A stretch of DNA of 38,026 nt. Source: Chloroflexota bacterium. GTDB lineage: Bacteria > Chloroflexota > Dehalococcoidia > Lucifugimonadales > UBA3495. The stretch spans positions 1 to 38,026 of the forward strand of contig JADFFS010000016.1 in NCBI GenBank assembly GCA_022568195.1, in the 5' to 3' direction. The notes beneath the pieces were generated by a model. That model saw nothing but the letters and a program-made list of their open reading frames with translations, was not told the origin of the DNA and did no database searches. Below are positions 28,421-29,353 of this stretch, piece by piece. Each line of letters begins with the position of its first letter. The first letter of the stretch is position 1. The position numbers and the translations under genes are program-made.

Positions 28421-29353
28421 TCAGGTGCTTACCAGCTGGCCGTGCAGCCTCAATGCGCCCCCTTCCGGTATGAGTCCGGAAAACGTTTCGGGATGAATCA
28501 TCTCCGCCATAATCTCTAAACCAGCCACCAACCGGGGTCCCGAACGGCTGGTGAAGGCGCTGGCGTCGATAACGTAGACCCGGTTGTTCTGCACTGCGGG
28601 AAGTCCGTCCCAGCCCTCCAGAGCCGACACCACTGGTACATCCTGTAGGCCGCGTTTCACGTCGAAGCCGCAAGGCATGAATACGATTACATCGGGCTGG
28701 CTGGCAATCACGTCGGACCACTCCATTCGGGAAGACCCCGATTCCTTGTCTCCGATGCAGTTGACTCCCCCAGCCAGTTCCACCATCTCGGGCACCCAGT
28801 GGCCGCCACACATCAAGGGATCGACCCATTCCAGGTGCAACACCCGGGGCCTGGTGGAGGTTTTGGCGGCCCGCTCCGTCACCGAATCGATGCGGGCTTG
28901 CATCCGCTCCGTTATCTCCTGGGCCCGCTCTTCGGTACCGGTGGCCCGGCCCACCCGGCGAATGTCCTCCAACACGTCACCCAGGTACTGGGGGTCCAAC
29001 GAAACGACTTCGGGCTTTTTATCCAGGTTTATGCTGGCCTCGGCTACCTGCCGAGTGGAGATGGCTCAAACCTCACAAATGGCCTGGGTTAGCAGCAGGT
29101 CCGGCTTCGCCGCCGCCAGCACCTCTTGGTCTATATCGTAGATCCCCAAGCCCTGTTTGAGCCGCTCACCGATGACCTGGCTGATCTCGCCGCTGGTCGG
29201 CTCCGTGCCATCGAAAACGCTGCGAACCACAATGGGCTTGTTCTTGGCGTCCGCCGGATAATCGCACTCGAAGGTCACGCCGTGTAGCTGGCCGTCCAAG
29301 CCCAGCTGGTAGACGATTTCCGTGGCGCTGGGCAGAAATGAGCAAATCCGCAT
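28421..29353 (-). CDS. BtuF/FepB-like substrate-binding-fold protein, candidate selenoprotein (Sec96, CEVU motif)
   Basis: MRICSFLPSATEIVYQLGLDGQLHGVTFECDYPADA...LLLTQAICEV-[TGA 29068..29066]-AISTRQVAEASINLDKKPEVVSLDPQYLGDVLEDI... continuous frame; the track splits it into 29066-29353 and 28421-28999. Hairpin with GGT loop just downstream. Confidence 0.85.
29039..29055 (-). promoter_or_regulatory. putative bacterial SECIS hairpin (CEVU gene)
   Basis: mRNA CTCGGC-AGGTA-GCCGAG, perfect 6-bp stem, apical loop AGGUA, loop starts 16 nt after the TGA. Confidence 0.8.

What the first reader, a model, noticed from the sequence alone, without database searches (positions are those of the whole stretch)
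28421..29353. Candidate new selenoprotein: BtuF/FepB-like substrate-binding-fold protein with C-x-x-U (CEVU) motif
Seen directly: two track ORFs lie in one frame, separated only by TGA at 29068-29066. The peptide across it reads LLLTQAICEV-U-AISTRQVAEASINLDKKPEVVSLDP. Ten nt after the TGA is the hairpin CTCGGC-AGGTA-GCCGAG, with its loop 16 nt from the TGA and a GGU in the loop, matching the bacterial SECIS consensus. From recollection of COG0614 cobalamin/siderophore-binding-type homologs, this site carries CxVC, so Sec would replace the second Cys. The protein starts at the fold (MRICSFLPSATE) with no visible signal peptide, suggesting a cytosolic redox role rather than classical transport. 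I do not know of this family as a described selenoprotein.
Basis: partly seen in the sequence, partly recalled or inferred. Interest (0 to 1): 0.92.

Follow-up and report, generated by a model that had tools for sequence, protein, structure and literature searches.

The report
BtuF-like CxxU selenoprotein in SAR202
This is a real selenium-containing protein gene of a SAR202-type Chloroflexi bacterium, in a family already listed in the literature; what looks new is that it sits next to a second selenium-protein gene and is probably a cytosolic metal- or redox-active protein rather than a nutrient importer.

Summary
A 310-codon gene (window 29353-28421, minus strand) is interrupted only by TGA at 29068-29066, followed by a bacterial-type SECIS hairpin. 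It is a genuine selenoprotein gene. The TGA occupies the same codon in 45 of 50 genomes of the same family, where Cys homologs have TGC/TGT. The hairpin codons are the most synonymously constrained stretch of the gene, and three sequences show a compensatory pair change. The genome has SelA, SelB, tRNA-Sec(UCA) and a Sec-containing SelD. The "new family" claim fails: reviews already list "Cobalamin-binding protein BtuF, cd01144, CxxU" (2022, 2026), credited to Peng et al. 2016. Added here: (i) a second selenoprotein gene, OsmC-like (32402-31965, TGA 32045-32043), is a conserved same-strand neighbour in 31 of 51 loci; (ii) FecCD permeases are absent from most carriers, including three single-contig chromosomes, so a classical importer role is unlikely; (iii) in other phyla a signal-peptide-less Cys homolog lies in cobalamin-riboswitch btu operons beside an ordinary BtuF; (iv) Cys is ancestral, with two Cys/Sec changes on the tree. 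Best guess: a cytosolic corrinoid- or soft-metal-binding, redox-active protein with Cys30, Cys93, Sec96, Cys228 and His185 in the cleft.

The parts
28421..29353 (-). btuF-like selenoprotein gene (310 aa, Sec at residue 96; stop TGA 28423-28421)
   Evidence: Peripla_BP_2 PF01497 94 bits across the TGA
29066..29068 (-). in-frame TGA = Sec96 codon (C93-E-V-U96)
   Evidence: same column TGA in all 45 distinct full-length Sec-form sequences; TGC/TGT in Cys homologs
29039..29055 (-). SECIS hairpin, 6-bp stem CTCGGC/GCCGAG, loop AGGTA
   Evidence: RNA-level constraint and compensatory change; meets the bSECIS limits printed in PMC13188914
29471..31468 (-). CPA2/Kef-type monovalent cation:proton antiporter, upstream on the same strand; lies between the two selenoprotein genes
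   Evidence: TIGR00932 183.9 bits, below its 238.3 cut-off; conserved at this place in about half of loci
31965..32402 (-). OsmC-like selenoprotein gene (145 aa, Sec at residue 120, motif RRUPLYGSV)
   Evidence: PF02566 score rises from 34.6 to 46.1 bits when read through; same TGA in all 31 neighbouring homologs
32043..32045 (-). in-frame TGA of the OsmC-like gene
32013..32028 (-). SECIS-like hairpin of the OsmC gene (GGTCGC-CGTG-GCGACC)
   Evidence: near invariant, with compensatory pairs in L118 and L121

Best explanation
A genuine Sec-decoded member of the already catalogued BtuF-like CxxU selenoprotein family, in a SAR202-cluster Dehalococcoidia genome. SelA, SelD and tRNA-Sec make Sec-tRNA, and SelB bound to the hairpin just after UGA inserts Sec96 (shown by anatomy and conservation; not shown biochemically). 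The product is a cytosolic protein with a class III (BtuF/heme-binder type) two-lobed fold. Invariant Cys30, Cys93, Sec96, Cys228 and His185 follow the C-terminal ends of core strands, where this fold binds ligand (inferred from topology). It most likely does not feed an ABC importer. It more likely binds a corrinoid or soft metal(loid) through its selenol/thiols, or does thiol/selenol redox chemistry on such a ligand, together with the neighbouring OsmC-type selenoprotein (inferred). Rough confidences: selenoprotein 0.97; cytosolic and not a BtuCD-type importer subunit 0.8; corrinoid-handling 0.35; other soft metal(loid) or redox substrate 0.45.
For: TGA conserved in 45/50 family genomes, with Cys in the same column elsewhere. 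Codons 100-105 are the lowest synonymous-entropy window, with only the loop codon free. 36/40 perfect hairpins against 0.8 expected, and 3 compensatory G-C to A-U changes. SelB, tRNA-Sec with anticodon tca, SelA, SelD itself with UGA. AF2 pLDDT 92.7; Foldseek best hits are class III SBPs including BtuF and heme binders. FecCD absent at meaningful score from 35 of 45 carriers, including single-contig chromosomes G017, G018 and G019. In Dadabacteria/Thermodesulfobacteriota the Cys homolog without signal peptide lies in a cobalamin-riboswitch operon beside a separate SBP with signal peptide, an ATPase and FecCD. OsmC-U neighbour in 31/51 loci.
Against: No protein-level evidence of Sec. The cobalamin link comes from Cys homologs in other phyla; no cobalamin riboswitch was found in the window or in 11 Sec loci, and the SAR202 riboswitches lie elsewhere. 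The cleft geometry was not measured because no model coordinates were available; only secondary structure and topology were used. About ten carriers do have a FecCD permease, so transport is not excluded in those.
Confidence: 0.85

Rival explanations
1. Same selenoprotein, but a pure thiol/selenol oxidoreductase (CxxU as a thioredoxin-like motif) partnering the OsmC-U peroxidase-family protein, with no metal or corrinoid ligand.
For: CxxU is a redox-type motif (PMC13188914); conserved pairing with OsmC-U in 31 loci.
Against: Two further invariant Cys (C30, C228) and invariant H185 accompany the motif, more than a CxxC redox pair needs; Cys homologs occur in riboswitch-controlled btu operons.
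Confidence: 0.3
2. Classical substrate-binding protein of a vitamin B12/siderophore ABC importer (a true BtuF), as automatic annotation says.
For: PF01497 and the BtuF fold; operon with permease, ATPase and TonB receptor in some Cys homologs.
Against: No signal peptide. FecCD absent from 35/45 carriers including single-contig chromosomes. NCBIfam BtuF model 31 bits against cut-off 234. Where a btu operon exists it has a separate exported SBP.
Confidence: 0.08
3. Pseudogene or sequencing error: TGA is a true stop or a base-calling error for TGC.
For: A single TGA in an otherwise intact frame.
Against: 45 genomes carry it; the sequence downstream is conserved at protein and RNA level.
Confidence: 0.005
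4. UGA is read as another amino acid (Trp, or suppression by Cys) or by genome-wide code change.
For: Read-through itself is implied by conservation; the amino acid is not observed.
Against: TGA serves as stop elsewhere, including this gene's own end; a complete Sec machinery is present and SelD also has UGA at its known Sec site; a SECIS hairpin is present.
Confidence: 0.015

Closest known systems
'Cobalamin-binding protein BtuF' selenoprotein family (cd01144, CxxU; RUA21600.1, MDE0719563.1; PMC9312934, PMC13188914, credited to Peng et al. 2016 PMC5029168)
   Same: Same domain assignment type, same CxxU motif, predicted selenoprotein with Cys homologs
   Different: Probably the same family, but the listed accessions could not be compared by sequence here; no function, neighbourhood or lineage analysis of it was found in the three papers read
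E. coli BtuF / class III substrate-binding proteins (BtuF 1n2z, RhuT 5y8b, IsdE 2q8p)
   Same: Fold (Foldseek probability 1.00, TMt 0.81 for BtuF chain 1n2z_A)
   Different: About 17-23% identity, no signal peptide, extra invariant Cys/Sec/His, no FecCD partner in most carriers
OsmC-like selenoprotein (UxxT; Sargasso Sea, PMC1088965)
   Same: OsmC family with Sec; likely the kind of the neighbouring gene
   Different: Here the motif is U-P-L-Y and the gene is paired with the BtuF-like selenoprotein
SAO operon SBP-type selenoproteins SaoB/SaoX (NF040727, NF040735; listed in PMC13188914)
   Same: ABC-type substrate-binding proteins with Sec; Sec of SaoB proposed as a possible metal ligand
   Different: Different families and motifs (CUxxT, UxP) by the published table; no sequence comparison was made here

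Membership tests
Bacterial selenoprotein | In-frame UGA aligned with Cys in homologs | tested here: met
Bacterial selenoprotein | bSECIS hairpin (loop 3-9 nt, stem 4-16 bp, G in first two loop positions, 16-37 nt from UGA, MFE <= -7.5) | tested here: met
   Loop AGGTA, 6 bp, 16 nt; consensus energy -10.3, 45-nt fold -14.5; limits
Bacterial selenoprotein | SelA, SelB, SelC, SelD in the genome | tested here: met
Bacterial selenoprotein | Selenium in the protein | not testable with these tools
   needs 75Se or mass spectrometry
Published BtuF (cd01144) CxxU selenoprotein family | CxxU motif in a BtuF-like domain | tested here: met
   CEVU; PF01497 94 bits; the cd01144 model itself was not available
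Published BtuF (cd01144) CxxU selenoprotein family | Sequence homology to RUA21600.1 / MDE0719563.1 | not testable with these tools
   accessions not retrievable; identity inferred from the catalogue description
BtuF (vitamin B12 importer subunit) | Class III SBP fold | tested here: met
BtuF (vitamin B12 importer subunit) | NCBIfam BtuF equivalog cut-off | tested here: not met
   31.1 bits against 234
BtuF (vitamin B12 importer subunit) | Signal peptide / export | tested here: not met
   fold starts at residue 3; orthologs share the start Met
BtuF (vitamin B12 importer subunit) | Cognate FecCD permease in the genome | tested here: not met
   absent at meaningful score from own genome and from 35/45 carriers
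BtuF (vitamin B12 importer subunit) | Binds cobalamin | not testable with these tools
   only indirect: riboswitch operons of Cys homologs
OsmC (neighbouring gene) | PF02566 domain continuing across the TGA | tested here: met
   34.6 bits to the stop, 46.1 bits read through

The most novel reading that the evidence does not exclude
SAR202 bacteria carry an undescribed two-selenoprotein operon (OsmC-U, optional Kef-type antiporter, BtuF-like-U). In it a substrate-binding-protein fold has been turned into a cytosolic protein that uses Sec96 with Cys30/Cys93/Cys228/His185 to hold or reduce a corrinoid cobalt or another soft metal(loid).
Probability: 0.35. Interest if true: 0.75.

Novelty: new member of a known kind. 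Interest (0 to 1): 0.45.

Why it matters
The selenoprotein itself is catalogued but has no assigned function. The work here gives it testable context: a conserved partner selenoprotein, evidence against the 'B12 importer' annotation in its main lineage, a B12-riboswitch link for its Cys homologs, and a Cys-to-Sec switch with a likely reversal. If the cleft binds a corrinoid or metal through Sec, it would be a substrate-binding-protein fold using selenium as a ligand in the cytosol.

Tried and rejected
Rfam scan of the window: no hit at gathering score. The class-wide search at a strict threshold found no TGA form outside the family among 296 genomes, though one search gave more divergent Sec copies (L126, L128) whose family was not checked. 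A plain fold-energy scan of all TGAs in the window was uninformative as a detector: many non-genes fold more stably, so energy alone was rejected as evidence and synonymous constraint and covariation were used instead. The plasmid collection gave only relatives below 60% identity. Searches for papers on SAR202 plus selenoprotein or selenocysteine found nothing relevant by title and abstract. The GOS and Sargasso papers hold no match for cobalamin or COG0614. The main text of Peng 2016 does not mention BtuF; the credit comes from the two reviews.

Full report
OBSERVATION. The minus-strand frame 29353-28421 is open for 310 codons except for TGA at 29068-29066. The hairpin CTCGGC-AGGTA-GCCGAG lies at 29055-29039, 10 nt after the TGA, with the loop 16 nt after it. 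These values fall inside the published bacterial SECIS limits (PMC13188914).

IT IS A SELENOPROTEIN GENE. Among 50 genomes of the same family, 45 carry a homolog with one in-frame TGA at this site; the five without one are all 75% complete or less. In 45 distinct full-length Sec-form sequences the column is TGA in every case; in 20 Cys homologs it is TGC 16 times and TGT 4 times. Over the gene, codons 100-105 have the lowest synonymous entropy of any six-codon window. Ser TCT, Arg CGG, Gln CAG, Ala GCC and Glu GAG are nearly fixed, while the codon covering the loop's end (Val GTN) is free. Of 40 distinct 30-mers, 36 keep all six pairs; redrawing synonymous codons with the clade's usage gives 0.8 on average and at most 5 in 2000 trials. 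That null does not model relatedness, but the copies range down to 53% identity. Three sequences replace a G-C pair by A-U, partly through an amino acid change (Arg to Gln). The genome has SelB (349 bits), tRNA-Sec with anticodon tca (67 bits), SelA (458 bits) and a SelD with its own in-frame TGA at the UxxK site. SelB is above the curated cut-off in 44 of 50 family genomes. Protein-level proof is not available.

ORGANISM. Close loci in the named collection are titled SAR202 cluster, Dehalococcoidia or Chloroflexi MAGs, for example from station ALOHA and deep Lake Baikal. The own genome holds a second Sec copy (G000:C169, 65% identity) and a Cys paralog (G000:C102, 38%).

ALREADY CATALOGUED. 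'Cobalamin-binding protein BtuF, cd01144, CxxU' is listed among predicted prokaryotic selenoproteins in two reviews (PMC9312934; PMC13188914); the 2026 review credits Peng et al. 2016 (PMC5029168; BtuF is not mentioned in its main text). The listed accessions could not be compared by sequence, so identity of family rests on domain and motif. The 'new family' claim is therefore not supported.

WHAT IT IS NOT. The protein passes PF01497 (94 bits) and folds like class III substrate-binding proteins (AF2 pLDDT 92.7; Foldseek to BtuF and heme binders), but scores 31 bits against a cut-off of 234 for the NCBIfam BtuF model. It has no signal peptide: the first strand begins at residue 3, and orthologs share the start Met. 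FecCD permeases, the partners of this SBP class, are absent at meaningful score from the own genome and from 35 of 45 carriers. The absentees include three single-contig chromosomes of 97-99% completeness. A general importer role is therefore unlikely.

CONTEXT OF CYS HOMOLOGS. In Dadabacteria/Thermodesulfobacteriota-type loci L141, L142, L144 and L164 a cobalamin riboswitch (82-107 bits) precedes the region. Gene order was laid out for L142, L144, L147 and L164 and Pfam was run on L142: TonB receptor, an unassigned lipoprotein-like gene, the Cys homolog without signal peptide, a second ordinary SBP with an N-terminal signal-like stretch, ABC ATPase, FecCD. The short homolog thus accompanies, rather than replaces, the exported BtuF-type protein. 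In SAR202 the cobalamin riboswitches lie elsewhere; one precedes a precorrin methyltransferase-like gene (that name is from reading the translation, not from a profile).

SECOND SELENOPROTEIN. The OsmC-like ORF at 32402-32043 stops at TGA 32045-32043. Reading through gives RR-U-PLYGSVAVATADTTVDLVAHAEPHR, and PF02566 rises from 34.6 to 46.1 bits. A hairpin GGTCGC-CGTG-GCGACC follows, with compensatory pairs in L118 and L121. Homologs lie upstream on the same strand in 31 of 51 loci examined, all with TGA at this site: 13 directly adjacent (22-121 nt gap) and 17 with the Kef-type antiporter between, as in the window. The review's section on selenoprotein operons does not name this pair. OsmC-like selenoproteins themselves are known (PMC1088965).

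EVOLUTION. A tree of 63 sequences needs two Cys/Sec changes. Cys is outside and basal (midpoint root); Sec appears at the base of a 33-row clade (98/93). A nine-row Cys group (P0002-P0027; one member is labelled Candidatus Tectimicrobiota) lies inside the Sec clade (31-row fork 100/100). This is most simply one gain and one reversal, perhaps with transfer; two gains are not excluded.

MECHANISM (inferred). Columns invariant in 37 homologs include C30, C93, C/U96, H185 and C228. In the model each follows the C-terminal end of a core strand (23-27, 86-90, 180-182, 222-225), which is where this fold holds its ligand (general knowledge of class III binding proteins). No coordinates were available, so distances were not measured. 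A cleft with three thiols, one selenol and a histidine suggests a soft-metal, metalloid or corrinoid site, or redox chemistry on such a ligand. The riboswitch context favours corrinoid; the OsmC-U partner favours redox. I put corrinoid handling at 0.35, other soft-metal or redox substrate at 0.45, importer at 0.08.

VERDICT. Observation confirmed; selenoprotein essentially certain by sequence; family not new; neighbouring second selenoprotein, missing importer and riboswitch link are the added value.

Noticed in passing
window 31965-32402 (-): Second selenoprotein gene (OsmC-like, Sec at residue 120), a conserved neighbour of the BtuF-like selenoprotein in 31 of 51 loci.
   Followed up: yes
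G000:C169:2131-3042 (L047): A second Sec copy of the BtuF-like gene (65% identity) in the same genome; similar extra copies in G031 and G020.
   Followed up: partly
P0002-P0027 (homologous-protein hits): Cys orthologs nested inside the Sec clade, one labelled Candidatus Tectimicrobiota: probable Sec-to-Cys reversal, perhaps with gene transfer. DNA around them could not be fetched.
   Followed up: partly
codon 95 before the TGA (window 29071-29069): The Val codon just before UGA is GTT in 43 of 44 Sec copies counted, unlike Cys homologs; possible 5' context preference at the Sec codon.
   Followed up: no
L009 1152-1597: The tRNA-Sec gene lies directly after a thioredoxin-like ORF in this genome.
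   Followed up: no
window 27571-28254 (+): Gene resembling the Lon N-terminal domain, convergent with the selenoprotein gene and present beside it in 39 of 51 loci.
   Followed up: partly
L142 4411-5901: A roughly 500-aa lipoprotein-like gene without a Pfam match, conserved between the TonB receptor and the BtuF-like gene in cobalamin-riboswitch operons.
   Followed up: no
window 33601-35200 (+): Queuosine-type genes (QueD-, QueC-, QueE-like by reading) upstream of the selenoprotein cluster; a QueD-like neighbour was found in 11 of 51 loci.
   Followed up: no
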